Source: Fistulifera solaris (Eukaryota > Bacillariophyta > Bacillariophyceae > Naviculales > Stauroneidaceae). Taken from it: a DNA stretch of 64,000 bases. Numbering within the stretch: the stretch's first letter is position 1; each line of letters begins with the position of its first letter. The DNA lies in NCBI GenBank assembly GCA_030295235.1, contig AP026164.1, forward strand, positions 558,001 to 622,000. The letters are read 5' to 3'. Positions 544 to 54,074 of this stretch are shown here, one piece after another. The notes beneath the pieces were generated by a model, which was not told the origin of the DNA, searched no databases, and was given only the letters and a program-made list of their open reading frames with translations. The position numbers and the translations under genes were made by a program.

Positions 544-1228
544 TCAACTGGATCGAAGCTCGGATAAGTGTTTGTTGATTATTAGGGGTGGCGTATTAAT
601 TACGGCATGATTACACCTGGTAAGAAAATCCGCTCAATCAAGGTTTGGACGTTCCTCATTCAATCCGATAACAGCATAAACAATAGCAATTAGAATGCCA
701 TGTGTTCGAGGCGTTCAATGAATTCTTTCTGGTGAAATATGCGGACCTTGCCTCAACACAACCACGACTGCATTTCAGTCATGAATCACATTTTGTATTT
801 TATCCGTTCTGTACGCCTCCTAGAGGAAGCTTAATCGCCTGACTGAAATAAATTTAAAAATTCATAAGTTAGGGCATGTTATTTGGAGATCTGTTAATGG
901 AGTGGAAGACGTCGACGCGTTGCGCAACCAACTTTTAATCGAAAGGTGTTTACTCTCTTTATGAAGTGTACCCCTGCGTAGGGCGACAATGTTCCGACTC
1001 AGCCGGAATCCAGTCCCGGAAAAGTTATGCCTCCGCGCTCCGCTCGGCTCCGCGCGCAATCAGCGGCTCGTCTGTCTGTCCTCCCAACGGGTCGATCTTG
1101 TGATCTTGTGGTCTTGTGGCTTGTGGCAATGCGGATTTTCGTTCGCCCTTCTATGTTTGCCATGTTGCTTTGCAAATAGACTGGACTAGTGTGCTTTCTT
1201 TGAGGGAAAGATTCTGCGGTGGCTTTCT
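544..1228. other. Intergenic or upstream-exon region
   Basis: This stretch separates the minus-strand membrane-protein gene from UPF1 on the plus strand. It may hold upstream exons of the minus-strand gene (a short hydrophobic open segment near 640-700) and the UPF1 promoter and 5' UTR, including T-rich and G/T-rich DNA just before the UPF1 ATG. No other gene is supported. Confidence 0.4.
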
Positions 1229-4200
1229 ATGCTTTTGAAACAGCCAATGGAAGACGAAAAAGCCAGTAACGACCGCATCGGTCACGCCGAAGTTCACTTT
1301 AACGACGAGGACGACGACCCGGAAGAGAGCGAGGACGATGAAGAAGAATCCAGTGACGGGGATGAAGACTTATCCGATGTATCTCATGAGGAAAATGCTT
1401 CGGATGATGATGAAGACATACTTCTTTATTCTGCTGATCACTACGACGAAGACAACTTACCGGACTATTCTTGTCGTTATTGCGGTATTCACAATCCATC
1501 TTGCGTTGCGATGTGTGTGGAGTCCAAAAAGTGGTTCTGCAATTCATCGGGTACAACCGGTTGCAGCCATCTCGTCCACCACTTAGTTCGATCGCGCTCT
1601 CACCAGGTTCAGCTGCACCCTAATAGTCCCTTAGCGGACACTGTTTTGGAATGTTATAATTGCGCTTCGAAGAACGTCTTTGTTCTGGGATTCGTCCCTG
1701 CCAGTGCCAGTTCGGTTGTTGTTTTGCTGTGTCGTGTGTGCGTTGAGACAGTGCCTGCTTTGAAAGACATGGATTGGGAACTTTCACAGTGGCATCCGGT
1801 GTTGCAGGATCGACAATTTCTTCCGTGGTTACTGTCGGTGCCATCGGAAAAGCTTCAGTTGCGCGCACGGGATATCTCGCAAGCTCAAATGGCAAGGTTG
1901 GAGGAGCTGTGGAAAACAAATCCGGAAGCTCGCTATGCGGATTTGAATCGCCCGGAAATAACGGAAGAGCAGGATCTACCTTCCGTGCAGCGTGTGTACG
2001 ATGATGGATATCATTACCAAAATATACTCGCACCGCTTGTGCAGCTCGAAGGTGATTACGACAGGCAAATGAAAGAAAGTTTGACGGAAGAGAGTATATC
2101 TATTCGTTGGGACAAGTCGTTGGCGGGGAAACACGTGGCCACATTTTCTTTCATAGGTTACAAGCGGAACAGTCGAGGATTGTGATCGGCGACGAACTAC
2201 GGATCAAACTAGGACAGGGTTCACAGTTTTTGTTTGGACGAGCATGGGAAGGAGTTGGATATGTCAAGAGCATCATTGATGGTGAAGTCGAACTCGAATT
2301 ACGGAGCGTCTCTGTCCCGGAGAGTATCACGGACGATTACGTCGTGGAATACGTTTGGAAAAGCACGTCGTATGATCGTATGCAGAACGCTTTGAAAACG
2401 TTTGCGATCGATGACACTTCGGTTACAGGATATATCTACCACAAGCTTCTCGGACATGCGGTTGAAGAACAGCGAATTGCTACCGCCAAAATTCCAGCAA
2501 CCGAAGCAGAATTCCATGTTCCAGGCTTGCCTCCTCTAAATGAGTCGCAACTTGAAGCGGTCAGCACAGTCCTGCAGCGCCCTCTCAGCTTAATTCAAGG
2601 GCCTCCAGGTACGGGCAAAACTGTTACTAGTGCAACCCTTGTTTACCATCTGACGCGGCAGAATATGGGTCAAGTGCTTGTGACAGCTCCCAGTAATGTT
2701 GCTGTCGATCAACTGACTGAAAAAATTGCCGCTACGGGGCTCCGTGTTGTACGTCTTGCTTCAAAAACTCGTGAACAGACGTCTTCAACCATTGATCATC
2801 TGTGTCTGCACGTCATGACTCCTTTGGCTGCTGGTGATGAGTTTCAAAAATTGCAACGTCTGAAGGATGAGATCGGCGATCTCTCCGAACGAGATCAGCG
2901 CAAGTACCGAGCTCTTCGCAATCGTACCGAGAAAGAAATCCTTCAAGCTGCTGACGTGATCTGCTGTACGTGTGTTGGAGCTGGTGACCCGCGGTTGAAG
3001 AACTTTCGTTTCCGCCAAGTGCTGATCGATGAGGCAACTCAAGCCATTGAGGCAGAAGCTTTGATTCCAATTGCCATGGGAGCAAAGCAAGTCGTCTTCG
3101 TTGGCGACCACTGCCAGCTAGGACCTGTCGTCATGTGCAAAGCAGCGGCAAAGGCTGGCTTGACACAAAGTCTATTTGAGCGACTTGTTCTTATTGGGAC
3201 GCGCCCAATTCGTTTGCAAGTGCAATACAGAATGCATCCTGCTCTTTCTGAATTCCCTTCCAATATGTTTTATGAAGGCAGTCTGCAGAATGGTGTGACG
3301 GAAGCCGATAGACAGTTGTTGACTATGCCTAGCTTTTCTGGCAAGGAAGATTTCCCCTGGCCTGTTCCTGAAAAGCCCATGTTCTTTTATTGCATTAACG
3401 GAATGGAAGAGATTTCGGCATCTGGCACGTCTTACTTGAACCGAACCGAGGCCTCGTACGTGGAGAGAGTTGTGACGCATTTGTTGCGAATGGGCGTGAC
3501 TCCGGCACAGATCGGTGTTATTACGCCATACGATGGACAGAAGAAGTACCTTTCTGATTACATGCGCCGAGTTGGCGCTCTGGCCAGTTCGCTTTATGAA
3601 GCTATTGAAGTTGCTTCGGTCGACGCTTTCCAGGGCCGTGAGAAGGATTTTATTCTGGTTTCATGCGTCCGCTCTAGCGAAACACAGGGTATTGGTTTTT
3701 TATCGGATCCACGACGTCTAAATGTGGCGCTTACGAGAGCTCGCTTGGGAATTATCTTGTTCGGGAACCCTCGCGTACTGAGTAAAAACCCGCTTTGGGC
3801 TGCCCTGCTAATTCATTTTAAGGAGTACGAATGTCTTGTTGAGGGCCCCTTGACCAATCTTCAGGCAAGCTACATCACCATTTCACGCCCGAAGCGCAAC
3901 CCAGCTAGTGATTCTCGTTACGCTTTTACTGCGCTAGCAAGAGGCGGTTGGGATGGACGCTGGGAAGACCGACGAGACCGCCCGAACGAGGCCCCTGCCT
4001 TTAAGCGCCGTGGACGCAGCAAACAATCGGACTCAAGATTCGATCCTCGGTACGAATCATCCAGCGGTGCTCCGGCTAACGCCAATGGATCTAGTGGAGG
4101 TTTGCCCATTCCGAGCTTTGCTCCTTTGCCGAGTTACGCTGGCGGCGGTGATGATTTGAGCAGTGTGGGAGGCGACAGTGCTGTCGACTCGCAGTTTGGT

Positions 4201-4326
4201 GGAAGTAGGGCAAGTTTCTTCTCCCAGCAGACGCAGCGAAAAGACGATTCTCGCGGACCATCATTGGGCTACTTTGTCGGCGGACCTAGCGGTAATTTTT
4301 TTGGTGGGGATCACGGCAAGAAATAA
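1229..4326 (+). CDS. UPF1: UPF1/RENT1 RNA helicase of nonsense-mediated decay
   Basis: UPF1 is the superfamily 1 ATP-dependent RNA helicase at the centre of nonsense-mediated mRNA decay. An acidic N-terminus (about residues 15-75) leads into the cysteine/histidine-rich zinc-binding CH domain, whose first cysteines are in [13 protein letters not shown]. The helicase core follows: Walker [10 protein letters not shown] at 2596-2622, a Walker B of DEAT type near 3027-3040 (human has DEST), [26 protein letters not shown] and ALTRARLG. The C-terminus is Arg/Gly/Ser-rich, as in many UPF1 proteins. The CH and helicase parts lie in different frames: a single base appears to be missing in TTTTCTTT at 2144-2151, and homology runs straight across it. 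The ATG at 1229 is the first in frame; a second is at 1247. Identification is secure; only the frame break is uncertain. Confidence 0.95.
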
Positions 4327-5334
4327 TAACGACTAAGGTACAAAAGGAGTAGGAACAATGGACTCGGGATCGTCTGCGATCAACTATAGCAGAAAATGTT
4401 TGTCTTCTGTTACTAAACAGTTGCTTTTCGGAGAGGAGGGGACAAAGATCTACCCATTCTTCTCGCGAGACGATCCAAATGGTCCACGCAGGACTTTCTT
4501 GTAGCAATCGCTTAACCGTTCACCATCTACCAGGTATCAACAACAGTAGACTGTTTAGCGACGTCGAACCGACCATAAGAGTTTAAATAGTAAAACGCAA
4601 TAAGAATATGGATAGGTAGCTAAGCGAGGAAATGTTGAAATTGGTAGATGCTTCTTGCTTCTTGCATCGTTTGATTCGTAATGTCGTAAGTAAAATGCCT
4701 TGGGAGCAGTTTGGTCTCAAAAATTACTATAGACCCAAAGTGTTGTCTGTTTTTCACAACGACTGGATTTCAGTCATGAATCATCATTCTTCCGAGTCAG
4801 CGCTACCTAGCCTTTGTTCTTACTGCTAGCATGCTAAACTATGATTGTCCTTATTACATTCAATATTCTTTGGCAGCATTCGCGATGCACTGATTGATTC
4901 GTGATGTCAAGATGCCTTGGGAACGAAAAACTTCCATTGTCTTCTGTCCAATGATTAACCCTAACACTACTATCACTACTTTGGCATGTGAGCCACGTCA
5001 CGAGTGCAGCTTTTTACCAGGTACCTGGAAACGGCGTTAAAATTCTGCCTCGTCGTAGACGCTACGTAGAATCTTGTACTTGGAGGCAGAATTTTAACGT
5101 CCTTCCCCGGTACGGGTTGGTCGCAAATTTTGCAAAGGTCAAGAAGAATGCGAGAACGACGATGGAGGCGGTTCGGTGAACCAATCCAACTTTTTCGACG
5201 TTGTTAATCGCTCTTTATATGCACTAATCCTGTAATTGTGGAAAAAGGGTGTGAAAGGTCGTTTGCCTGCAAATCTGGTCACTCCTAGCTTCTCGTTTTG
5301 AACATCGACCAGCGGACGCCGTCGTAGCCAAATC
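4327..5334. other. Intergenic region between UPF1 and formin gene
   Basis: About 1 kb without a supported gene. It contains two loosely similar copies of a short segment (GATTCGT followed by ATGCCTTGGGA, near 4672-4706 and 4894-4923). A perfect 17-bp inverted repeat at 5035-5099 lies about 240 bases before the formin start codon. The rest is presumed UPF1 3' UTR and formin promoter. Confidence 0.5.
5035..5099. repeat. Perfect 17-bp inverted repeat upstream of formin
   Basis: The left arm CGTTAAAATTCTGCCTC (5035-5051) and right arm GAGGCAGAATTTTAACG (5083-5099) are exact reverse complements separated by 31 bases. It could form a hairpin in the formin 5' leader, or be a dyad regulatory site or the relic of a small inverted-repeat element. 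No function is shown. Confidence 0.7.
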
Positions 5335-8300
5335 ATGCTGGCAACAGAACCGACTACGCAGAGATCACGGAAATTGAAATATTTACAGCAACAGGAACGG
5401 CGGATTTCTGCACTTTTAGACGTTAGTTACGTAACGAATCGCATCATTGCCGCTTCGCAACCCATTCCGGACGATGAACCAACCTATCGAGATCTGGGAC
5501 GGTCAACTTGTGAAGGAGAATCATTCACGCAAAGCGAACAACAAAGAGACGCCTCGGAACGTAGTGCAGGCATGTATCAGGAATTAGAAGATTCTGTTTC
5601 ATCTGCCCGGCAAGTTTCTTATTCAAATTTTGGTGAAATCGGCAAATCAGACTTTCAAAGTCCCAATGACAACGATGATACGTCCTTAAGCTTACAATCC
5701 GACATCCGGTCTCGCAGAACTTTCAACTCGTCAGTCAGAAACGAAAACAATCCACGAAGAAACTATGCACACTCGTTGGCTAAATTCCTGAATAAGAAAC
5801 ACGGAGAGGGCAATTACCTTTTGTTTTCATTATGCGATGATCAAGCGGATGACTCCACATTGTTTCACCTGCGGCGTCAAATTGTACAATTGCCTTGGAA
5901 ATCCTCCAGAGATAATGCTTCGGAGCTTCCTACGGTCCCTTCATTGCTGGATATCTGCTACGCTTTTCATGCATGGCTAAACATGGAGGGCATTTCGGTC
6001 GGAAACGAAGGTCACTCGTCGCTCAAGCGATCGCAACACGTGGGCGTGATTTATTGTCCCAACGGAAAGACTCGAACGGCTATTGCTATCGCTTGCTATC
6101 TCAAGTTCACTGGTCAAGTGGACAAGACTGAAGATGGCTTCTTACTCTTCCTCGAACAGCGATGTCCGGATAGTGAGCTTTCACCGGCTACTGTGGCCAA
6201 AGCTCTCCCCGCGTCCATTCGTACTTTCTTTAGAAATTTTGATTCCACGATCAAGCTTAAGCGATATATGAATCAACAACCGCTCTTACTTCGGTCAATA
6301 GTAATGCGTGGCCTTCCGGTTGAAGAGAAACCGTGTTTGAATATTTTCAACGCTCAAGGTGACCATGTGTATTCCAGTCACCCTGACTTGTTTGGAGATA
6401 TATCCGTGACGAACCCTTATGCCCAGCAAGATCCCGGTCATTGGGAGGAAGAGGAAGGTTTCTTTCCAGTCAACCAGATCTTGGAAGGGGACTTCTATTT
6501 GCTGTGCCGATTCGGAGGACACTACGCAGACGATCTCTCTGATCCATCAAAGATCATTTTTCGTTATGCAAACACAACAAGTTTTCTTGGAGCTGGACCT
6601 ATCCACTTACGATGTGATAGAGTTGATCTGATGCGTCGATACGCGCACCTAATTGATTACAAGGAATTTTTACTCTCTATGACGTTTGAAGCATCTTGGA
6701 ATTGCTCTAGTCAGCAAGAAGCACCTTTGCTACAGAGAGATAGTATATCTGACAATGTTCTTTACGTGCGAAGCGGGTACGAGGCTATGGAACAAGGCTG
6801 GGAAATAATTTCACGGCATCATTGCGCAAAGCCAGTGACCATCGATGTCGACCTTTTACGAGCCTCCTGTGAAAGTCTACATGATTGTCCTTCTCATCTT
6901 TCCGCTTTGGCCTTGCAGCTTAGCAACTTTGATTTGAATAGCGCTAAAAACATGCTCACAGAAGGAAAAATGAGTCTTTGGTGGAGTCGTCGGACAGCGA
7001 CAGAGGCTCCATCTCTCCAATATCAATCGATTAGCCATACACAGCCCACTGTTCGGCCAGAACATCTTGAAATAAGAAACCGTATTTTAAATTTGGTCAG
7101 GGGTGTTGGTGCACTATCGACATCATTTGGGAATGACTCGTTTCAGACAAGGGCAACGAAGCCATCCACTGAAGATATTGAAGAAGGATACACACCAGTA
7201 AAACGGCCAGATGCAGCTTCTTGGTATACATCCCCATTGATGCGACCCAAGTCGGGCGACATCACAAATGCAATCGGCAAGGCTAAATTCATTTACCCAA
7301 ATTCAGACCATCCATTACGCCGAAAAGAACAACCTCTCGTTCCCTTTTTTCCGCACCCGTTACCTATGAAAGAAGGAACAAGTAGCGTGCTTGATGATCC
7401 CCAGAATCGCAATGCTTTTGACATGTTGATGCTTTCTAGCCCTCCTAACATTTCCATGAATGATTTACTTGCATTGCAGCGTTATCTCAGAGGTGAAAGG
7501 GAGCGTCCTCATCCAGAAACAGCTAAGATATGCGGTGATGGTACAGAAATCATGCTAGGTCGTGGAGCAACCAATGACCTCAGCAAACTACCTGGCGACA
7601 AGAATGAAAGTGTCGTCGACATGAAAAGGACAGCATATCCTTCGGAAAAACCAGCTCTCACAAATGCAAAAACTAATCTCATATCGTATACTCCGTTGAA
7701 AGATGATGAATGTTTTTCGAAGTACTACAAGATGCTGAAGATGGGCCTACCGCGAGGCGCTGTTGAGAATGCAATGACTCGAGATGGCGCTGACTTGTCG
7801 CTGCTTGATTTGGATCCTGAAAAGAGTCTTGTGTCTCAGAGACCGACACAGGCTGTATCCTCGGACCGTCCGTTGAAAGATGATGAATGTTTTTCGAAGT
7901 ACTACAAGATGCTGAAGATGGGCCTACCGCGAGGCGCTGTTGAGAATGCAATGACTCGAGATGGCGCTGACTTGTCGCTGCTTGATTTGGATCCTGAAAA
8001 GAGTCTTGTGTCTCAGAGACCGACACAGGCTGTATCCTCGGACCGTCCGTTGAAAGATGATGAATGTTTTTCGAAGTACTACAAGATGCTGAAGATGGGC
8101 CTACCGCGAGGCGCTGTTGAGAATGCAATGACTCGAGATGGCGCTGACTTGTCGCTGCTTGATTTGGATCCTGAAAAGAGTCTTGTGTCTCAGAGACCGA
8201 CACAGGCTGTATCCTCGGACCGTCCGTTGAAAGATGATGAATGTTTTTCGAAGTACTACAAGATGCTGAAGATGGGCCTACCGCGAGGCGCTGTTGAGAA

Positions 8301-11300
8301 TGCAATGACTCGAGATGGCGCTGACTTGTCGCTGCTTGATTTGGATCCTGAAAAGAGTCTTGTGTCTCAGAGACCGACACAGGCTGTATCCTCGGACCGT
8401 CCGTTGAAAGATGATGAATGTTTTTCGAAGTACTACAAGATGCTGAAGATGGGCCTACCGCGAGGCGCTGTTGAGAATGCAATGACTCGAGATGGCGCTG
8501 ACTTGTCGCTGCTTGATTTGGATCCTGAAAAGAGTCTTGTGTCTCAGAGACCGACACAGGCTGTATCCTCGGACCGTCCGTTGAAAGATGATGAATGTTT
8601 TTCGAAGTACTACAAGATGCTGAAGATGGGCCTACCGCGAGGCGCTGTTGAGAATGCAATGACTCGAGATGGCGCTGACTTGTCGCTGCTTGATTTGGAC
8701 CCTGAAAAGAGTCTTGTGTCTCAGAGACCGACACAGGCTGTATCCTCGGACCGTCCGTTGAAAGATGATGAATGTTTTTCGAAGTACTACAAGATGCTGA
8801 AGATGGGCCTACCGCGAGGCGCTGTTGAGAATGCAATGACTCGAGATGGCGCTGACTTGTCGCTGCTTGATTTGGATCCTGAAAAGAGTCTTGTGTCTCA
8901 GAGACCGACACAGGCTGTATCCTCGGACCGTCCGTTGAAAGATGATGAATGTTTTTCGAAGTACTACAAGATGCTGAAGATGGGCCTACCGCGAGGCGCT
9001 GTTGAGAATGCAATGACTCGAGATGGCGCTGACTTGTCGCTGCTTGATTTGGATCCTGAAAAGAGTCTTGTGTCTCAGAGACCGACACAGGCTGTATCCT
9101 CGGACCGTCCGTTGAAAGATGATGAATGTTTTTCGAAGTACTACAAGATGCTGAAGATGGGCCTACCGCGAGGCGCTGTTGAGAATGCAATGACTCGAGA
9201 TGGCGCTGACTTGTCGCTGCTTGATTTGGACCCAGATAGAAGTCTCATCTCCCAACAAAGCAATATCGCGAACAATAAATTTGGAACTAAGGAGACTCTT
9301 TCAAACACGGCCGAGTTTAATCAGTTTCAAGCCGAGGATATTGCTTCTCAGAAAGCATCTAATTCTCATCTAAGGGCAGAGCCACGACTGAACGCAGGAA
9401 AAAAGAATGTGAGACGGAAAAAGATATATTGGAATCCAATAAACCCCGGGGGAATTGAAAGAGGATTCTTTGTGGTCGTTGGTGAAAGGAAAAGTGCCGA
9501 TGGACAGTTTAAAGTACGATGTTCGAGAGTTCGAGGATCTTTTTACCGAGTCGCCTGATGCAGCAAAAACCAAAACAATAAAAGCAGAGAAAAGAGTAGA
9601 AACAAAGAGGAGCGTCCAGGTTGTTGATGGGAAACGATCCATGAACGGAGGCATTATTCTTAAGCGTTTAAGGATCGAGTATAAGGTGCTTGCTGAGATG
9701 GTCGAATCAATGTAAGTAAGATCTTGATGACGCTTTGTCGTTCAAAGCAAAGCTTTTCTTATGGCATCGTTTACGCCCCAGGGAAATTGGAGCTCTGGAC
9801 GCAACATCGATCAAAGCGCTGAAAGAATACCTACCTACTGCTGACGAAAGAAACCAGCTTCAATCCTATTTACAAGCGGCTGGTGAATCCAAGGAGAAAC
9901 GAGAAAAGCTCTACGGTGATCTGAGTGATTGTGAGAAGTACATGATTTGCATGATGGACGTAGCTAAAGCCGAAGATCACTTCGATTGCATGTTATTCCG
10001 GGTGCAATTCCGATCCAGATTCGACGAACTTACTGAGTGTCTTAGGACGGTAGACAAAGCTTGTGATGAGGTCAGGTTTTCTGAAAAATTTCGACAGATT
10101 ATGGCAATAATACTAACCGTGGTCAATCAAATCAACACGGGTGGCGAAGGAAAGGGTCAGGCTATGGGTTTTAACCTTGAGACACTTTTGAAGCTTAATG
10201 AGGTATGTCTTTTTGGCTTGTCAATGGACATCTTCGCAAATCTCATCTTTCTACTCAAATCAGGCGAAGGCTTTTGATAAAAAAGACAAGCGTTCTTCAA
10301 TATCTCATCAAAGTGGTCAAACGAAACGACGAGTCGCTAATTGAATTTCATGAAGACCTTCCACATACCAACGACTCAGCAAACATTATATTGGATTCTC
10401 TATGTTCTGATATCAAAGCATTAAAGGAAGAACTTGAAAAATTATTTAAAACATCACAAGAGCAAGCAGACGAGCTCTTGGACCTTGGGATAGCATCTAA
10501 ACTCTCTCTTTCGGAATTGAAAGAGCAGAAAACGAACGTTCGTACTCTTTCGGGTGTTTCACAATTCAACCAGGTAGATCATTTAACGGGTAGAACACCT
10601 ATGGAAAGGTTTTGCCTACATGCAAAAGCATCAATCGACGAGGCTAATCAGCTGACTTCGCAAGTCCAGGTCAAGTTTAGAAGCCTTTTGCAATACTTTG
10701 GAGAGGACGAGAAGATGGCTAGTAATGAATTCTTTGGGACACTCAAACGGTTTATCGCAGATTTTAAGAACGCAAATCAAATTGTACAGAAAAAGGAGAA
10801 CATGCGGGTACGTTTTCTGAATAACATACATCTGAAAATTAATTTGAAGCATTGCTCACATTGCTGAAGCTGCGAGAGATGAAAAGACAAGAGAGCATGA
10901 TACAGACAGACCGACGGATCGGCTTAGAGAAACAAAGTAAACAAGCATTCCACGCAACAGAAGTCACCAAATCTAGTCCCATGAGCTCAGCATCAGCGAT
11001 CTCTGCATTCTTTGCAGCAAAGAAGGAAGCGGATTCTCGGCTTTTTGTTTCGGATTCCGCCACCGGTGGCGTGAGTTTTGTTGACACAACACCAATTGAC
11101 TATTCCAGTTCAGCCTCAGGAGAGGCACAGTTGTCAGCTGGTACTGATGTAGACCAAGGCATTGATGGAGAAGCGGACAAAAGGGTGGTTTGTGAACCAG
11201 GAAAATTGTCGCCACATGCAGCAGTTGTGGTCTCCGCGTCTTCTACATCGAGAAAACAAGGCTCCTTTTCAGAAGGAGACCAAACCGATACGGTTAGTAC

Positions 11301-22246: not shown

Positions 22247-22862
22247 ATTGTTTTATTTTAGATAAAGCAAGACACTGAGAAAAATTCTGTTGAACTCTTT
22301 TACTTTGATTCAACAACTACCTTCCGACGGAGTATTTGTGTGGCCCTTGCTAGTTTATATCCCAAGAAAAGCAAAACGCAAATCTGTTTGTCGGCACCCG
22401 CAATAGCTTCCACCTGGCGCCGCCCGTCTGTCATGCATCATATGGTGCCGTGTTGGTGATTTGTGTAGACTATCAGCTATTTTGTAGAGACGATATCATC
22501 CTTTCTGCAATTTTGCAAGAGGCCATAATTACGAAACTTCAAATAAGATAGCAATGCTAAGCTGTATCCTGTTTTATGTACGTTGGTGGGGCAGTTCGAT
22601 GTTCGATGCTTCTTTTTGGTTTCTGGGGGTCGGAGACTACGTTTTAGTGTAGAAAGTTACCATTGTGGTTGGGGGCATTTCCATACGGCGGCACGCTCGG
22701 ACGAAAGCAGCGACGAGCAGCATCGTCCATGGTGCTGCGCTTTGTATCCTGGATGAAATTCCGTGAACATACGCTCCATTTTGCGACGAGCATCTCTTCT
22801 TCATTACATTAAGTCACCATTTTCATCGATTATAATCATTGAACGTAATTGACGTCTCCGCC
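22247..22862. other. Divergent intergenic region
   Basis: 616 bases between the start codons of the minus-strand secretory protein and the plus-strand HSA/SANT gene. It presumably carries both promoters. No further gene, RNA or repeat was identified. Confidence 0.45.
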
Positions 22863-25800
22863 ATGCCAGTTCCGAGGAACAAACGCAAACGCGTCGAGAA
22901 TCCAGTCGACAGCACCTCAGCACCGTCCCGCCGCCGTCGGGATAGTGGAACGGGTGCTGAGCCGCCGACAAAATCGGATGTTACTCGTCAAGATACAACA
23001 ATCGACGAGGGAAACGATCAAGTCGAAACTTCCACCGACATCAAACTTCCTCTACACGAAGAGGATACCGAAAAGAATGCAGAGCTCGACGAGAGTGAAA
23101 ATTTGCCGATGGCATCTCCATCAGCCGAGGGGGCATCGAATAAAACTCGACTTCGTGCCTTGCTGGTTCATAGAAAACTGTTGCTGAAGCGATTACAAAC
23201 GATGAAACAAGCAGCACAAGCAAGGCTGAGTGATCTTCCACCAACAAATCAAACGTCAGATGAAGAAGTTTCATCATTTCGAGAACTCTTACGCCACGCG
23301 ACAACTATTGCTCGACAGCAGGCTAAATCCGAAACTCAACAAGAACGATCCTCCGTTTCTCTGCGACGGGGATCTTCAGTGGGAAAAAGAATGAATGCGG
23401 CTTTATCTACTCTATCATCTGTAGACCCCGGAACTGCTGCTCAGCCGATACCCACAGGAGATATATCATCGTCAGCAGTGGACAGGCCACAATCGGCGGC
23501 TCACAAATCCTTAGTCGTCAAACGGTCTGTAACGCCCCAGCCTCAACAACGTCCTGCATCAGCACCTACTCTCGTGAACAACAATAAACTGCAACAACAA
23601 CGAGGGCCGCCGCACAAAGGACACCCACGGCAGCAACGTTCAGTGCCCTCGATCTCGATGAATAACGCTACGTCTCAGAACATCATCTGCGGGGAAACCG
23701 CTGCACTGAGGGAACAAAAAGCCGCTATTCAAGCGAAATTGAATTCTTTGTATGAGAGAAGAGGACAGACATTTCCTCCGACAAAACGCTTTCACAAAGG
23801 CAGGGACTTGAAACTAGAATTACCCCCGCGTCGACAAACTGCGTGGGATGTCTTATTACAAGAAATGCGATGGATGGCTACTGATTTTCGAGAAGAACGT
23901 AATTGGAAGCGTGCGACAACTCGATTGCTCAGCTCCGCTGTGATGAAAAAAAGAAACCAGCGCCAAAGAAATACCAGCAAAAAAGAAAGTTGAAAAAGAC
24001 GTCCGCGCCCCTAAAACTCCAAGAAAGGATTGTTCGAATGTTTACGATGACGCAATTGACGTTGAAACGGCAAAAAACATTGCGAGACAGCTATCGACAA
24101 TGATTTCTGAAAAGATTGCTGCTCTTCTTCACGAACCAAAACTCACAAAAGACGCGGCCGAGGGAACAAATTTGGAAAATGCCACCGTTGAAACGGTGCA
24201 TCCCATACACGACAAAAATGACATGCATGAAAAAATTTCTTCTCTTTTCGAGAGCGTTCAAACCACAACATGGAAAGAGGAGCAGGATTTTGATGAAGGG
24301 CAGCAGTACGGATTGCAGATGTCTGAGAAACAATCTGCTACCATTCTTAGAATAGAGTCCAGATGGGATAAGTTAAATGTCGGGAGTGTGCTTCATGGAA
24401 GTCGTTGCAGCGGTAAAACTATACTTGTCTGTTCTCTTCTGTGGCGACGCCGAGATCTTGGTCCGCAGCTTTTACTCTGTCCGGCGTCAAGGTTAATTCG
24501 TTGGGGACACGAGCTTCGACGTTTCAACGGCCTACGGCCGTTCGTCTTGGACAAAAATGTAGGAATTGATACTCTTGGAAAGAACGATGTGCTTCTTTGT
24601 AATCATATGTCTCTGGGTCGCTTGAGCAAGTCTAGCAGGGCCAAGCACTTCGTTTCTCTGATAATTGATTGCCGTCATGCTTTCGGCTTTGGAAGATTGA
24701 CAACTACTCAAGCTTCTTTTTGTCCGTCATCAATCATATCGTCAGATTGGTGGGATGCCGCCAATGGTTTGGTAAACATCCAACAGAGATGTTTGATTGT
24801 CGAAAACGAGTCGAACACTGGTGAGCTACCAACGTATGCTCGCTGCCTGCCTCATAAACTGACACTCGAAATTTTGGCGTTCCGCACAATGTTGCTTATG
24901 GGTGCGCCCATTTCGACCCTTTCGTCTGAGCGACTGGGAGCTAAAAACCTCCTTTCCTGGGCCAGGAAACATGTGAAGGAGGGATCAACGAAACCAGCGT
25001 CTCTGTTTAAGGCAGTGAAGGATGTGTTACTTTCTTGTGTAAAGCCGTTACTTATTGATTTATTATCGGCCCCTCAACTCGATCGGTCCTGTTTATCGAA
25101 TAGCGGTAAAGAGCCATGGATCATTGTTCCGATTCAAATGACAGCATCACAACAAAAAGCCTATGTTCATTGCTGCCAGGAAAGTCAATTTTGTCTTTCA
25201 CAAAAATTATCGGATTGTCGCTCGATTTCAGACTCATTACTGCGACTGCGAAGGTGCTGCTCATTCGTCGAAAACGATGCTGTATCGTCTACGGTGACTC
25301 TCTATCAGGCAATGAATGACTTTTCGAAAGTGAAGACGTCACAATATAGCAACCCCTCTTGGTTGTCTTTCGATGCCGCTAGTCGCCTGCTCAAAGCATC
25401 GGGCAAGCTTCAAGCTCTTCTGTCGATACTTTCTGAACAATCTTCAGTATCAATGGGAAACGAGAGTTCGGTGGAACTTTTGCTGGAAACCAAAAACACG
25501 CTTGACTTACCTTCTTCTGCCATTCCGAAAGCTAAGAGAATCGCTGTTGTTGCGGCATTACCGGAGTTGTTGCTTATGACCTCAATTCTACTTCACTGTG
25601 TGGGTCTCAGCCATCGGTTGCTCTTGGAACCCACGTCCATGCCAGACGAGTTAGTCTTCGACAATTGGAAAGAAAACCAACTTGCGCTTTGTGACTTCAA
25701 CTCAGACACATTACTACCGGAAATTGTCGTTTGTTCGATTGAATCGATATCGGGTGATCACGGGGGTTGAGTACCGAGCTAGCTGACCTTTTGTCTGCCT

Positions 25801-28752
25801 CGACGAAGATTGGAGCGGTCGTTCTGAAGTGTTGCTTCAACAAGTTGTTAACCGTTCGTTTCAGCGACGTTCTCGTCAAGGCATGGCACCGTGCAACTTC
25901 CTGCGCTTGATATCCAAAAACACATGCGAATCTACTTTTCTTTTGGATCCCCACAAGCTATGTTCAGGTCGACAGCACCGAATATTTTCTTTAAAAATAA
26001 ACCCTATTGGGTGGTTTGATACGCATGTTGCTCCTGAAGAATCAAACAAGGAAGGAGAGGATCCAAGAAAGAGAGCCGTTTCATCCTGTCTCTTTGGATT
26101 CCCAGCGGATAATGTGCTGTCATTCCGCGACTCTCTACTATCTGAAATTCTTGCCACCGACAAACTACCCCCATTACTCTCGCATAACGGAGATGTATTG
26201 TTTCTACCGTCATCGAAACAAAATAATGAACTGGAATTAGAATCGTCCTTTATCTATTCAATGATCGAAAGCGAGTGGTTGGCGAAAGCGACAACGACTG
26301 CGAGACGAACTCCGATCCAGACAAAAGAAACAATCCAGGAAAGTTTTTCAGTTCCTGCGCTCTTTGATTCGGAAGCTGCTTTCTTTTTTTGGAAGACTAC
26401 GAAAGCGTCTCTTTTTTCTTACATACAGCAACTTGCCGTCATCAGCGAGGCAGTCACGTTCGGATTATCAGAAGGATTGACTCTTGCTAAACCATCATCA
26501 ATAGCCGGTTCTGTCAATAAGGATGAGCGCATTTCCAAGGGGACGCAAATCAAAGAATCATTCTCCGATGATATGAAACCCGATGCATCGGAATCATCTC
26601 TCCTTTTCTACAACTTCAATGACACCAGGAATGAAGACCGTAACGAACACCGTCAACGTTTCAACCTTTACGCCGCTTCATTTGGTAAAGTATTTTCGGC
26701 CTCGGATCTCTCTACCCTATGTCAAGGAGAGGAACCAATATTTTACACTCCTCCTCTATTCCCACGCATCGTTGAGTCCTCGATTCTTGCCGAGAGTGAC
26801 TCGGAATTCATCATATCGTCATCGGTAGCAGATGCTGCTATTAAGATTTCGCCAAACGGAGATCATCGTGATGCAAAGAGACTACGTTTGGATCACGAAT
26901 TCGAACATTCAGAAGATGTTTTGTTTGACATTGCGCTAGATCTCGAAGATATCAAGAAAGATGATAGCTATTCCCAGTCACTAGCAGTGCCAAGCCTAGT
27001 TGAAGACTTCGGGATGGCCGGCGCAGGTGCTGTTCCTCTCCCACGGGATTCTGCTCTTGCTGCTGCTCACACTGCAGTAGTGCCCATGAAGCTTTCATAC
27101 TATAAAGAAGCCACGGATTGTTTTATCGGCAATGATGTTTTTGAAGCCGAGAAAGAAAGCCCCTCTTTGTAGATGAATCGACGTTGAAGTCGGTCATTTT
27201 ATTTGTGTCAAGAAAACGTCCCCGCGGACAGGTGGTGCGACCGGTGACTTCTCAGCCGGGTAAAGCGTATCGCGTGCCCTTACCCGGTTCCTTAGGGCCC
27301 CCTTCAATTTTGGCTGCTGGCAAAAGCGTCAATGGTGTTATACACGAGCACAATGGTAGTTTGACGGGCAAGCAGATGAAGAAAAGAAAGGCAATGGGTT
27401 CCAGCGACCACACGATGACAGTCTCATCTGCATTTACGCGATTACCTTATAACGACACAGCACTTCTAGGGGGAACCTCGGGCCAAATGGGCGGACAAGC
27501 AAGTGTCAAAACCAAGGATTCACTGAAGAAAAATTTGCTGATTTCCTTACGCCAATCGTCGAGTGGTTTAACGTTGTTCGAATCGACAGGCTTTCGTCTC
27601 GCCTCAACTGACGTAAAAAATCGTGTGGGTAGCAGACTGATGTCGCACTCCTGGACATCTAATTCTGCTTTGGAAGTTGGACCGGGATTGCCTCTTCATG
27701 TCGTGCGACCAGACAGGGACCGTCACCCCATTTCTTTCGAAATCGACAAGTCACTATGGACTAGTATTATTAAGAAGTTAGGATCAAGCAATGACGAAAC
27801 AGGAAACGAGTCATTGGAAGTCGCGACTAAGCAAAAGGAATCTTTCCACCAGTCTCTCTCTATACCTTGTCGAATGAACTTCGGACCATTCCAAGCAGGA
27901 TTTCTTGCGTCTCCCACTGGTATGACTTACATTTCAGCGACCAAAAATCGCGTGGGAATTTCGTTACCAATGGGAGTGAAAGTCTCCTCGAACTTCGATA
28001 GCAGTATCAACAATGTGGACTGGACGCCGAGCCACGACGAACATCTCATCCGTGCAGTACAAAAATTCGGTTTTCATTGGAACATGGTTGCGAAATCACA
28101 AGCGTGTTTCAATGAATTCCGTTACGTTTATGATAGCCAGTCCGCTTCTCGGGGAATCTCTCGTAACTGTCGTGAACGGTGGCAGGCATTGTCAAAACTT
28201 GATCCCCTCTTGAATGCGAATGGGAACCAGCGACACAAATATTTTCGTCACAAGATCGATCTACCGGCAGGAGCTGATGCAGGCCAATACATTGAGCGTC
28301 CATCTTTCGCCGCTTGTAAACAAAAAGATCAAGCAATTGTTATCTTTGTCCCAGGATCAGCGCTGTTGGGTAAACAATTGGATGATGCCGAGAACAGTGC
28401 AAGGAAGGATACAGTGGAATTAGATCAAGCAAAAGCAACGATACCAAAACGAACTTTCAAAGCATTTAACAAATCGAAACCTTTAGCTATGAAGCAAAAG
28501 GTTCCAATTCCAGGTGTCGCAACGGAGAAGCCATCCATCGGGCCAAGCCACCCCTCTCATGCTCAGTCCGTTGAAGAGGCCGTTACAGCATTGGGAGCCA
28601 GTGGAAGGTCCGAAATGTGGCCGCTCCAACTTCTAGTGGCGAATGCTAAACGCACACCATCAGGAGATAACAACAAAACGACTAGTAATGTTTCTGCAAA
28701 TAGCCGAACCAACACTCAAGCGCCTGCAGGTCAACCCAAAACTGGAGCATAG
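22863..28752 (+). CDS. HSA - degenerate SNF2 - SANT chromatin protein (p400/Domino/EAF1 type)
   Basis: Domain order is that of p400/Domino, scaffold subunits of NuA4/TIP60 acetyltransferase and H2A.Z-exchange complexes. A basic N-terminus (KRKRVE) precedes an HSA domain (23,820-23,945; PPRRQTAWDVLLQEMRWMA). A SNF2-like region follows: motif I GSRCSGKT (24,396-24,420), LLLCPASRLIRWGHEL, IIDCRHAF where DEAH is expected (24,663-24,685), LLMGAPIS, VPIQMTASQQKAY, ASGKLQALLSIL, and DEDWSGR with QVVNRSFQRRSRQG in place of motif VI (25,800-25,880). A SANT domain (28,018-28,190; VDWTPSHDEHLIRAVQKFG) precedes a disordered tail. Four frame breaks lie at A7 23,946-23,952, G5 25,762-25,766, T4 25,789-25,792 and near 27,155-27,163. 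The ATG at 22,863 is the first good start. The ATPase is probably inactive (inference). Confidence 0.85.
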
Positions 28753-43207: not shown

Positions 43208-44696
43208 CTAATGGATTATCTTCACCTTTGATATGGTGTAAGTATGTACCGTATTCATCAAGAAAAGTCTTCCATCGTAGTATTCTTTGTGATGTGTATT
43301 TTTCGAAGACATTGTTTCGATGGTCCGTATAGACATGAAGGTCTGGACATCCATAGAGCATGGTACCGAAACTCGTGTAGTATCTTGACAATAGATAAGA
43401 GTTCTTTTTCTCCTGTAGTGTAATTTCGTTGTGCAGCGTCGAAGTTTTTTGGTATAGTAGGCGACTGGCATTTTGTCTTGAAATATGGCCGCGCCCATTT
43501 GTTCATTGCTTGCGTCGGCATAAATATGGAACGGTTTGTTATGATTTGGGTACTGGAGAAAGGCATCTTGAGCCAGTAGTGCTTTAATTTGCTTGAATGC
43601 TTGTTCCATTTCGTTAGTCCAGTTAAGCTCTTTGCCTTTCGTTGCCGTTGCTTTTGATAATGGTGCAAGAATATGAGCTCGACGAGGGTACATATCGCGA
43701 TAAAAATTGATAGCTCCAAGGAAGCTTCGTAATTGATGAACGTCTTTTGGTTGCTTGAGCGCGAGGGATGGGAGTTATACGTTTTTTCCAAGGTTTTAGA
43801 CCATTCGGTGTTAACCAGTATCCTAGCCAATCCGTTTCTTGAACTCCCCATTCGCATTTTGAAGGATTGACAATGAAGTTATTGTCTTGCAATGTCATTA
43901 AGACTCGGTCAAGAAGTTTAAGATGAGCTTCCCACGAAGTCTGAAAAGCATCCGACATCGTCGATGTAGACTTCAACGTCTTCAAAGTTTCGAAATATCT
44001 TTTCCATCTTCTCTTGAGATATGTCGGGAGACTGTGATATTCCCATTGGTAATCTGTTATATCGGTAATTTCCAAATGGCTGCACAAATGACGCAAAGAT
44101 TCTTGCTTTCTTCGCCGAGTTCGAAAGTATAAAACTGCATTGAGATGTCGAGTTTCGTAAGATAGCGATATCCCTTCCGTCGTTTGAGAATGTCGGTAAT
44201 GATTGGAAGGTTGTAGACTTTTCGGCTTGATAACTTTATTCAATTGACGGAAGTCTGAGATCCATCGAACTCGACCATCTTTTTTTGGAATAATAAATGA
44301 AGGTGAAAGCCATTCGGATGGTCCAAATTTCGATAGGACTCCGATAGCTTCAAGATGTTCTAGCTCGCCTTTGAAGGTAGTTCGGTTGTATGGCGAGATT
44401 GGATAATATCGGCATGCGTGTGGTTTGCTTCCAGGTTGGATATCTATGTGGACTTTTTCCGGAAAGCATCCAAGTTTGCCTGAAAATAAACGCTTGTATT
44501 TTGATAGTAGACTTGCGAGTTGGTCCTTTTGCACATCGTTTAGATGATCTTGCTTTTGTGCGATTATATTTGGATTGGTTTCTTCATATTTCGCTGGTAG
44601 AATCTCTTTTGATTTGTATCCTGCCTCCTTGATTTGTTCTTCTGTAATGAAAGTTTCGAACGAATTAATTTTATCGTTTTCAAAGAGATCGGACAT
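43208..44696 (-). pseudogene. Retrotransposon reverse transcriptase / RNase H region (frame-broken)
   Basis: RT motifs include GVLSKFGPSEWLSPSFIIPK, RVRWISDFRQLNKVI and the catalytic YIDD box (near 43,950-43,970). RNase H follows with FHIYADASNEQMGAA (near 43,480-43,530). The region is spread over at least three frames. This is a gypsy-type RT by motif order. Confidence 0.9.
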
Positions 44697-44744
44697 GGAG
44701 GTAAAGTGTGCAGAGAAGTAGTTCGGTATAAAATAGTCACTTGA

Positions 44745-52438: not shown

Positions 52439-52754
52439 GCTGCAAGGAATGCTCTAAGAGGCTAAGAGGCACAAGACGACTGATGTGATGTTATCATTAT
52501 TATTATTTCCTCTCCGTCGTGATGAATGAGCGAGAGGCAACATTGCTTTATGAGCATCACTAAGGGTAAAGTTAAACATCTCTAGGGGGTTATCTTCCTA
52601 ATTCCTAACCCTAAACCTCAAACGAACTTTCACCTTAGCTGCGTCCGCCCTCCCATCCGATCAGTATGTGCCCCACCTCAAACCTTTTTTTTTACTTTCG
52701 CATTGCACACAATTCCTATGATTTGACAACCAATAATGAAGCACTGAAAGAAGC

Positions 52755-54074
52755 ATGTCTTTTCGCATTGTGTGCTACCTGTTATTAACTACTCATTGTT
52801 CATCATTTTTCACACAAAATAGAGTTACGCTGGCATCATTTCGATTGAATACAACACCATTATTGTTTACCATGAAACGAACCAGAAACGAGGATGCACC
52901 TCAAAAGGATCCGTCGCTATCATCACTAGAAACAATCCGCTTTGTCGAGTTTTATGCTGGAATCGGCGGATGGACTATGGCGCTACAACAAGTAGTAGAG
53001 CGGGGGCATTCCGACCTTTCCGGCTTGCGATTCGAATGCGTCGCTGCTCTCGATCATTCGGATCTGTGCAAAGTTGTGTACGAACACAACCACAAACCCG
53101 TCACCTTGTCAAATCGACCAATCCAAAAACTTACGGTCGGTCAAGTGGAAGAGTGGCAAGCCGATTTGTTCGTCATGAGTCCTCCTTGTCAACCACACAG
53201 TCGTCAGCATACGCATCAAGAGCGGGAATTGCAAGACAAGCGGTCCGAGAGCTTTCTGCACTTGTGTGAGTTAATTCAGTCTCTTTCGACCGTACCTTCC
53301 GTTATTTTGCTGGAAAATGTGGTTGGATTTGAACGATCGCAAAGTTTTTCCTACTTTCAGAAAGTTTTGAAGGATCGGAATTATCAGTGCTGTCATTTCA
53401 TAATTAATCCCAGTCAAGTTGGATTACCTAACGATCGACCTCGTTTCTATTCTGTGGCTGTACAAAACAATTATATCAAGCTAGAGAAAGATTCTTGGCA
53501 AAGCAAGTTCTTTACAAAACCGTCCGATGACATTAGTGCGGAGGTTATCATTCACACGGAAATTCCCGAGTTGGGAGTGAACGCGATGAACAGCATCATT
53601 GAAAAGGATATACCCAAGCTCCAACATTTCCTCGATAATCCGCCCGATCCGCGTTTGAGCATTCCAGAGAAGGTTTATCAAAAGCGAGCCGCCTGGTGTC
53701 TTGACATTGTCACTCCCGAACAACGACGCACATCGTGTTTCACGTCGGGGTATGGGAAATTTGTTCGCGGCACTGGCAGCGTCTTGTACACTGGAGAGGG
53801 AACGTTTGAGCTGGTAGCACCCGAACAGCGCGAATACGATGCTGAGTGGGACAAGGAATTGGATTGGACGAAAGCGCGGTACTTTTCTGGTTCCGAGTTG
53901 GCTCGTCTATTTGACTTCTCGAATGAATTTGCTTTTCCACGAACAGTATCACTGGGACAGCAGTGGAAGCTTGTGGGTAATTCACTGAATGTGAGAGTCG
54001 CTGCTCGACTATTGGAGTTTGCGTTTAGGGTACGCAGGAACCCGTTGCCGATAAATTTGGTCGGCACCCATTAG
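52755..54074 (+). CDS. DNMT2: DNMT2/TRDMT1-type tRNA (cytosine-5) methyltransferase
   Basis: DNMT2 looks like a DNA methyltransferase but methylates C38 of tRNA-Asp and other tRNAs. Motif I reads FVEFYAGIGGWTMAL, the catalytic Cys is in MSPPCQPHSRQ, motif VI is ILLENVVGFE, and the diagnostic CFT motif is TSCFTSGYGKFVRGTGSVL. Motif X is present near the C-terminus (VGNSLNVRVAARLLEF). Intact frame, no intron needed. From ATG 52,755 the protein has 439 residues with a hydrophobic, Ser-rich 39-residue extension (signal-like); the ATG at 52,872 (MKRTRNED) gives a conventional 400-residue form. It is followed by the dispersed repeat and a decayed copy of its own 3' end. Confidence 0.94.
   Translation: MSFRIVCYLLLTTHCSSFFTQNRVTLASFRLNTTPLLFTMKRTRNEDAPQKDPSLSSLETIRFVEFYAGIGGWTMALQQVVERGHSDLSGLRFECVAALDHSDLCKVVYEHNHKPVTLSNRPIQKLTVGQVEEWQADLFVMSPPCQPHSRQHTHQERELQDKRSESFLHLCELIQSLSTVPSVILLENVVGFERSQSFSYFQKVLKDRNYQCCHFIINPSQVGLPNDRPRFYSVAVQNNYIKLEKDSWQSKFFTKPSDDISAEVIIHTEIPELGVNAMNSIIEKDIPKLQHFLDNPPDPRLSIPEKVYQKRAAWCLDIVTPEQRRTSCFTSGYGKFVRGTGSVLYTGEGTFELVAPEQREYDAEWDKELDWTKARYFSGSELARLFDFSNEFAFPRTVSLGQQWKLVGNSLNVRVAARLLEFAFRVRRNPLPINLVGTH

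What the first reader, a model, noticed from the sequence alone, without database searches (positions are those of the whole stretch)
22863..28752. HSA-SNF2-SANT protein whose SNF2 ATPase looks catalytically dead
Known from the families: yeast splits functions between Eaf1 (HSA+SANT, no SNF2) and Swr1 (HSA+SNF2, no SANT), while animal p400/Domino fuse all three. Seen here: an HSA, a SNF2-like core recognisable over its whole length, and a SANT domain, in p400 order. Motif I keeps GKT, but the DEAH box reads DCRH and motif VI reads QVVNRSFQRRSRQG. Inference: a p400-like NuA4 scaffold whose ATPase has decayed, an intermediate between p400 and Eaf1 architectures.
Basis: partly seen in the sequence, partly recalled or inferred. 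Interest (0 to 1): 0.75.

Follow-up and report, generated by a model that had tools for sequence, protein, structure and literature searches.

The report
NuA4-type scaffold with dead SNF2 core
A single-celled alga, probably a diatom, carries a chromatin scaffold protein laid out like the animal p400 protein but with an ATP-driven motor that looks decayed, which may be a snapshot of how a motor protein turns into a plain scaffold.

Summary
The gene at 22863-28752 (+) encodes an HSA domain, a two-lobe SNF2-like core and a divergent Myb/SANT repeat, in p400 order. Its three frame breaks look like single-base assembly errors. A second copy on contig C3 (89% protein identity over 1702 codons) breaks elsewhere and shows the same decay: SGKT kept, DEAH box DCRH, TGTP replaced by GAP/GVP, motifs V and VI scrambled. 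Lobe 1 lies far above, and lobe 2 above, every one of 100 shuffles. The core is under purifying selection (dN/dS 0.18), about tenfold weaker than the ATPase exons of the separate, intact SWR1 (0.02). Tra1, EPL1, MYST and YL1 genes are present. Best reading: an EAF1/p400-type NuA4 scaffold whose SNF2 core survives as a non-catalytic fold, while SWR1 remodels. Against a simple 'decayed p400': the long INO80/SWR1/p400 insertion in lobe 2 is missing (46 aa; 740 nt in the resident SWR1), and HSA similarity cannot separate p400 from SWR1, whose HSA ranks the same way. The SANT match is sub-threshold. Orthologues elsewhere, complex membership and direction of evolution are untested. A new variant of a known kind.

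The parts
22863..28752 (+). whole gene, first ATG to stop, about 1,960 codons in four overlapping-frame ORFs; the assembly carries single-base breaks
23823..23984 (+). HSA domain (WDVLLQEMRWMATDFREERNWKRA); its last part runs into frame break 1
   Evidence: Pfam PF07529 E 3.2e-11; C3 copy's HSA hits EP400 E 5.9e-10, SRCAP 1.1e-7, EAF1 6.9e-5
23940..23995 (+). frame break 1 (A-run); the C3 copy has one base fewer at this run and its own break shortly after
24313..25062 (+). SNF2-like lobe 1 (motifs I-III and the degenerate RR region); extra residues between motifs II and III
   Evidence: the motif III segment alone is not significant
24409..24420 (+). motif I, SGKT retained (family: GLGKT)
24667..24678 (+). 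motif II, DCRH in place of DEAH/DEAQ (catalytic Glu replaced by Cys)
   Evidence: identical in the C3 copy
24901..24909 (+). motif III, GAP in place of the GTP of TGTP (GVP in the C3 copy)
25140..25960 (+). SNF2-like lobe 2, spanning a frame break; 46 aa between LRRCC and SGKL, where the resident SWR1 has 740 nt
25735..25767 (+). motif V region, SIESISGDHGG (family: SLKAGGTGLNL)
25767..25795 (+). frame break 2 (two single-base differences from the C3 copy, which reads through here)
25838..25882 (+). motif VI region, QQVVNRSFQRRSRQG (family: QATDRAHRIGQ)
27160..27172 (+). frame break 3
28018..28200 (+). Myb/SANT-like repeat (DWTPSHDEHLIRAVQKFGFHWNMVAK ... ISRNCRERWQAL), sub-threshold in Pfam

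Best explanation
It is the platform subunit of a NuA4-type histone acetyltransferase complex (EAF1/p400 class). Its central SNF2 domain has lost ATPase chemistry and is kept as a folded, non-catalytic module. Inferred working: the HSA helix binds the actin/ARP4 module; the SANT-like repeat binds Tra1/TRRAP; the pseudo-SNF2 body spaces and braces the two ends so that the acetyltransferase module can be tethered. H2A.Z exchange is done by the separate SWR1. Shown here: architecture, degenerate motifs in two diverged copies, purifying selection, a separate SWR1 with intact motifs, presence of NuA4 partner genes. Inferred: complex membership, the partner of each domain, absence of ATP hydrolysis.
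For: HSA and its EP400/SRCAP/EAF1 affinity. Both SNF2 lobes against shuffles; a prokaryotic SNF2 HMM gives 13.5 bits for each copy against at most 3.0 for 100 shuffles; collinear alignment. DCRH and the other degenerate motifs in both copies; 20 of 20 aligned SNF2 loci of this genome keep D-E at motif II (22 loci were given, 2 had no lobe 1 match, and these 22 are a part of the places behind the 81 matches). dN/dS lobe 1 core 0.185, lobe 2 0.184, HSA 0.149, SANT 0.178; Fisher tests on rounded site counts give p 9.9e-5, 4.6e-6, 0.022 and 3.2e-4 in that order. Resident SWR1 ATPase exons 0.018 and 0.016. Tra1, EPL1, MYST, YL1_C. Precedent: the fly DOM-A complex acetylates H4K12 without DOM-A ATPase activity, and a Domino ATPase inserted between the HSA and SANT of yeast Eaf1 does not affect its function (PMC7239659, passages). 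In human TIP60, EP400 SANT binds TRRAP and EPC1 is held between HSA and the post-motor domain (PMC11995519, passages).
Against: The SANT match is below Pfam's cut-off, and the PDB hits of this region are MYB chains and one CEF1 chain, with no EP400 or EAF1 chain listed. HSA cannot separate p400 from SWR1. The P-loop GKT is kept, so nucleotide binding is possible. No orthologue outside this genome was found, so the decay is seen in one organism. EPL1 was found on one contig only and as a partial match. Lobe 2 has an hhalign probability of only 49.7, and a single-family HMM of the window's lobe 2 finds no SNF2 locus significantly. Two stretches are less constrained: 24700-25200 has dN/dS 0.43 (p 0.018), and 25200-25380 has 0.90, not different from neutral (p 1). 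The AlphaFold model with SNF2 rows has pLDDT 59.5 and matches SNF2 structures, but without those rows it is uninformative (pLDDT 32.5).
Confidence: 0.7

Rival explanations
1. A SWR1-class or other SNF2 remodeller paralogue that lost activity and took a regulatory role unrelated to NuA4, for example a dominant-negative partner sharing ARP modules with SWR1; the SANT-like repeat is an ordinary Myb domain.
For: HSA ranking does not separate p400 from SWR1; the SANT-like region resembles MYB chains; lobe 1 is about equally close to SWR1 and a BRM/SNF2-like paralogue.
Against: HSA followed by SNF2 followed by SANT is described for p400, DOM-A and PIE1 (passages). Only two HSA locus pairs were found in this genome, this gene and SWR1 (4 matches of 11 scored candidates), so if it is not the NuA4 scaffold none was found, although Tra1, EPL1 and MYST genes are present.
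Confidence: 0.15
2. Both copies are pseudogenes of a p400-like remodeller, and the frame breaks are real.
For: Neither copy is open in this assembly.
Against: Breaks differ between copies and sit mostly at homopolymers by my reading. UPF1 in the same window also differs from its C3 copy by single-base gaps, some at homopolymers, and SWR1 copy L020 has a frame change where L021 reads on. dN/dS is 0.28 over 1702 codons, p 3.6e-34.
Confidence: 0.05
3. The SNF2 core still binds or hydrolyses ATP by an unusual chemistry, with the P-loop kept and other residues replacing the DEAH glutamate and arginine fingers.
For: SGKT is the same in both copies; lobe 1 core dN/dS is low.
Against: Motifs II, III, V, VI and the RR pair are all altered at once; dN/dS is about tenfold that of the SWR1 ATPase exons (p 4.2e-5).
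Confidence: 0.1

Closest known systems
p400/EP400 and Drosophila DOM-A
   Same: HSA, SNF2 core and SANT in the same order; serve as platform of a NuA4-type complex (passages)
   Different: EP400 keeps a motor with an insertion domain that sits with the RUVBL hexamer; here the catalytic motifs are degenerate and the insertion is missing
Yeast Eaf1 / plant AtEAF1 / Plasmodium PfEAF1
   Same: HSA scaffold without ATPase function, in an organism that also has a SWR1-type protein
   Different: Eaf1 and AtEAF1 have no SNF2 domain between HSA and SANT (PMC4358907 passages); PfEAF1 misses SANT (PMC11036802 passages)
SWR1/SRCAP
   Same: HSA followed by SNF2 lobes
   Different: SWR1 has intact motifs and the long insertion; this genome has such a SWR1 separately
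Plant MOM1
   Same: Chromatin protein with a degenerate SNF2 domain derived from an active remodeller (PMC2507757 passages)
   Different: MOM1 comes from CHD3 and its partial SNF2 is dispensable for silencing; that it has no HSA/SANT architecture is recalled, not from a call

Membership tests
EAF1/p400-class NuA4 platform | HSA domain of the p400/SRCAP/EAF1 type | tested here: met
   Pfam E 3.2e-11; C3 copy's HSA: EP400 E 5.9e-10, EAF1 E 6.9e-5; does not exclude SWR1
EAF1/p400-class NuA4 platform | SANT domain C-terminal to HSA | tested here: inconclusive
   Myb/SANT match below Pfam cut-off; MYB21 E 6.9e-6 by profile, no EP400 or EAF1 chain listed; position fits
EAF1/p400-class NuA4 platform | Physical association with Tra1/TRRAP, EPL1 and MYST acetyltransferase | not testable with these tools
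   Partner genes are present, association unknown
p400/EP400 (active SNF2 ATPase) | SNF2 motifs I-VI intact | tested here: not met
   DCRH, GAP, SGDHGG, NRSFQRRSRQG; 31 of 100 family-conserved positions kept
p400/EP400 (INO80-family split ATPase) | Long insertion in lobe 2 that sits with RUVBL1/2 | tested here: not met
   46 aa against 740 nt, at most about 246 aa, in both copies of the resident SWR1
SNF2 superfamily fold | Two RecA-like lobes with collinear motifs | tested here: met
   By sequence: profile-profile scores above 100 of 100 shuffles for both lobes, HMM against shuffles, collinear alignment. Limits: motif III segment alone not significant, lobe 2 probability 49.7; structural model only with SNF2 rows
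Eaf1 sensu stricto | No SNF2 domain between HSA and SANT | tested here: not met
   SNF2-like core present

The most novel reading that the evidence does not exclude
This is a living transition form: an HSA-SNF2-SANT platform in which the ATPase was switched off and the RUVBL-binding insertion lost once a separate SWR1 existed, so that EAF1-type scaffolds arise by erosion of a p400-like ancestor rather than p400 by fusion of Eaf1 with Swr1. The remaining pseudo-SNF2 fold would be a conserved structural module of this lineage's NuA4.
Probability: 0.3. Interest if true: 0.78.

Novelty: new variant of a known kind. Interest (0 to 1): 0.6.

Why it matters
Whether p400 arose by fusing Eaf1 and Swr1 (the view taken from yeast chimeras, Auger et al. 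2008 as cited in passages of PMC7239659, PMC4358907 and PMC6089883) or Eaf1 by losing the motor of a p400-like ancestor is, to my knowledge, open. A scaffold with a dead but selected SNF2 core makes the loss route testable by sampling related algae. It would also show that the ATPase of such a scaffold can be lost in nature, in line with the report that DOM-A works in H4K12 acetylation without ATPase activity (PMC7239659, passages).

Tried and rejected
Relatives in viral contigs and in genome contigs with the ORF 23950-25767: none confirmed, so no orthologues for a phylogeny; both are collections of viruses or prokaryotes, so this says little about other algae. PDB searches with the core: only weak lobe 1 hits. 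DBINO search for INO80: silent, and its controls were silent too, so no conclusion. NCBIfam: one hit far below its cut-off. AlphaFold without other rows: pLDDT 32.5, uninformative; the model with 22 SNF2 rows is partly circular and I do not lean on it. Subfamily placement of the core by score: lobe 1 about equal for BRM/SNF2-like L025 and SWR1, nothing significant for lobe 2; the subfamily names of paralogues rest on recalled motif II signatures. I did not build a tree, because decayed sequences attract each other and no orthologues were at hand. A tighter membership claim from the HSA ranking was rejected after the control with the resident SWR1. Alignment A3 misaligned lobe 2 and was replaced by A4. 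One search (wrong strand of a light-harvesting locus) found nothing and was repeated with the right frame. Literature: the listings of searches showed no paper on a diatom NuA4 scaffold or on a p400/EAF1 protein with a degenerate SNF2. Several of these listings were capped (20 of 85, 20 of 168, 15 of 132 and 12 of 34 papers shown), two returned none, and bioRxiv and most subscription journals are not in that library.
Full report
Setting. The window is G000:C4:558001-622000 of a 51.7 Mb genome in 61 contigs. Many SNF2 loci come in pairs on paired contigs, and the window's gene has a counterpart on C3. A light-harvesting protein of this genome matches chains named LHCI, ACPI, CAC and FCPI (60 of 102 hits shown); that these names belong to algae with red-lineage plastids is recalled. 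GC of about 0.46 and paired chromosomes fit an allodiploid diatom such as Fistulifera solaris (42 homoeologous pairs, GC about 45%; PMC5935921, passages), although 61 contigs is fewer than 84 chromosomes. This identity is an inference, not a result.

The gene. Four ORFs in overlapping frames run from 22836 to 28752. Alignment with the C3 copy shows 13 single-base gaps inside the coding region, two of them a compensating pair five bases apart, and four gaps of a multiple of three. The single-base gaps are spread over both copies and, by my reading of the output, lie mostly at or beside homopolymers. UPF1 at 1190-4326 of the same window also differs from its C3 copy by single-base gaps, and SWR1 copy L020 changes frame where L021 reads on. 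So the breaks are most likely assembly errors. In 26608-26726 the two copies are read in different frames and I cannot say which is right. That stretch, short pieces beside the other breaks and the tail after about 28246 are left out of the counts below.

Selection. Over 1702 codons that are in frame in both copies dS is 0.193, dN 0.054, ratio 0.28 (Fisher p 3.6e-34 on rounded site counts). By part: HSA 0.149, lobe 1 core 0.185, lobe 2 0.184, SANT 0.178. Weaker: the stretch with motif III 0.43, the linker before the core 0.52, the stretch 25960-26600 0.45, and 25200-25380 0.90, the last not different from neutral. The two ATPase exons of the resident SWR1 pair give 0.018 and 0.016, its acidic N-terminal exon 0.174. 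The excess of replacement changes in the window gene's lobes over SWR1's is significant (p 4.2e-5). The core is thus kept, but at the level of a scaffold part, not of an ATPase.

The SNF2 core. Profile-profile alignment to SNF2 profiles built from 20 loci of this genome for each lobe gives 48.3 for lobe 1 and 32.1 for lobe 2; none of 100 shuffles of either reaches the value, though the hhalign probability is 93.5 for lobe 1 and only 49.7 for lobe 2. Three comparisons with flanking segments stay within their shuffles (28, 7 and 10 of 100 reach them). The motif III segment alone does not stand out (7 of 100). Cross comparisons are weak: lobe 1 segment against the lobe 2 profile 2 of 100, the reverse 5 of 100. 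An HMM of 77 prokaryotic SNF2 cores (of 80 loci fetched) gives 13.5 bits for each copy against at most 3.0 for 100 shuffles. A 23-row alignment is collinear from motif I to VI. It keeps SGKT, the P of motif Ia, the D of motif II and the G and P of motif III, but changes the catalytic Glu to Cys, the Thr of TGTP to Ala, the RR pair of PFxLRR and most of motifs V and VI; 31 of 100 family-conserved positions are kept. The C3 copy has the same state apart from two residues in motifs III and VI. Of 22 paralogous SNF2 loci given, 20 aligned in lobe 1, and 20 of 20 keep D-E at motif II; these are a part of the places behind the 81 PF00176 matches.

Structure. With 22 SNF2 rows AlphaFold gives pLDDT 59.5 and pTM 0.55 for 24289-25767, and the 50 Foldseek rows shown, of 1147, are mostly SNF2 remodellers at probability 1.00, with a few other helicases. 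Alone the sequence gives pLDDT 32.5. So the model shows compatibility, not independent proof.

What family. The 52-aa HSA of the C3 copy hits EP400 (5.9e-10), SRCAP (1.1e-7) and EAF1 (6.9e-5). The control with the resident SWR1's HSA gives the same order, so this says 'p400/SRCAP/EAF1 class' and no more. The C-terminal repeat is Myb/SANT-like, below Pfam cut-off, and in the PDB resembles MYB chains. What favours the NuA4 platform is the order HSA-SNF2-SANT, the presence of a separate SWR1 with DEAQNIKN and QDRAHRIGQ, the lack of a third HSA locus in a six-frame search (4 matches of 11 scored candidates, two pairs), and Tra1, EPL1 and MYST genes in the genome.

What does not fit a simple decayed p400. 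EP400 carries an insertion domain that, with the motor and the hexameric AAA-ATPase, forms most of the BASE module (PMC11995519, passages). The resident SWR1 has 740 nt here in both copies, at most about 246 aa; the window gene has 46 aa, like the non-split remodellers of this genome (13-48 aa in the six loci where the pattern could be measured). Either the insertion was lost with the ATPase, or the core came from another SNF2 protein. By score lobe 1 does not decide.

Mechanism. In human TIP60, EP400's pre-HSA and HSA carry the ARP module, its SANT and HD bind TRRAP, and a piece of EPC1 is held between HSA and the post-motor domain (PMC11995519, passages). The DOM-A complex of flies acetylates H4K12 without DOM-A ATPase activity, and yeast Eaf1 tolerates a Domino ATPase between HSA and SANT (PMC7239659, passages). 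The simplest reading is that here the same scaffold is used with the motor switched off: HSA and SANT do the assembly, the pseudo-SNF2 body is a spacer and brace, and SWR1 does the remodelling. Loss of the insertion would also cut the link to RUVBL1/2. This is inference.

Against what is known. Papers seen in part describe three architectures, HSA-SNF2, HSA-SANT and HSA-SNF2-SANT (PMC4358907 passages; PMC6089883 passages and section 16). None of the passages seen mentions a degenerate SNF2 in this class, and the listings of nine searches, several of them capped (named in Tried and rejected), showed no diatom case. A degenerate SNF2 in a chromatin protein is known from plant MOM1 (PMC2507757, passages). 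I rate this a new variant of a known kind.

Noticed in passing
window 1190-4326 (+): UPF1 RNA helicase; differs from its C3 copy by several single-base gaps, some at homopolymers, a sign that this assembly has scattered indel errors.
   Followed up: yes
L020 5532-7529 (-) and L021 5818-7611 (-): The resident SWR1 has an acidic N-terminal exon with several repeats of a DDETT...GREMTYEEEL..LR.MY type unit, possibly H2A.Z-binding repeats (a guess).
   Followed up: no
L021 8656-9476: Two ORFs encode the same 127 aa (8656-9039 and 9093-9476) near one SWR1 copy; no such pair in the L020 ORF list.
   Followed up: no
window 52740-54074 (+): C-5 cytosine DNA methylase domain (Pfam E 1.1e-33).
   Followed up: no
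window 5302-9558 (+): 1,418-aa open frame matching WASH subunit CCDC53 with nine repeated stretches; may be a low-complexity match.
   Followed up: no
window 43623-44744 (-): Reverse transcriptase match just above Pfam's cut-off, perhaps a retroelement remnant, in an A+T-richer stretch.
   Followed up: no
window 26608-26726 (+): The two copies are read in different frames in this stretch of the gene; which frame is right is unresolved.
   Followed up: partly
G000:C16:1028491-1028805: EPL1 domain found on one contig only, although the matches for HSA, Tra1, MYST and YL1_C came in pairs.
   Followed up: no
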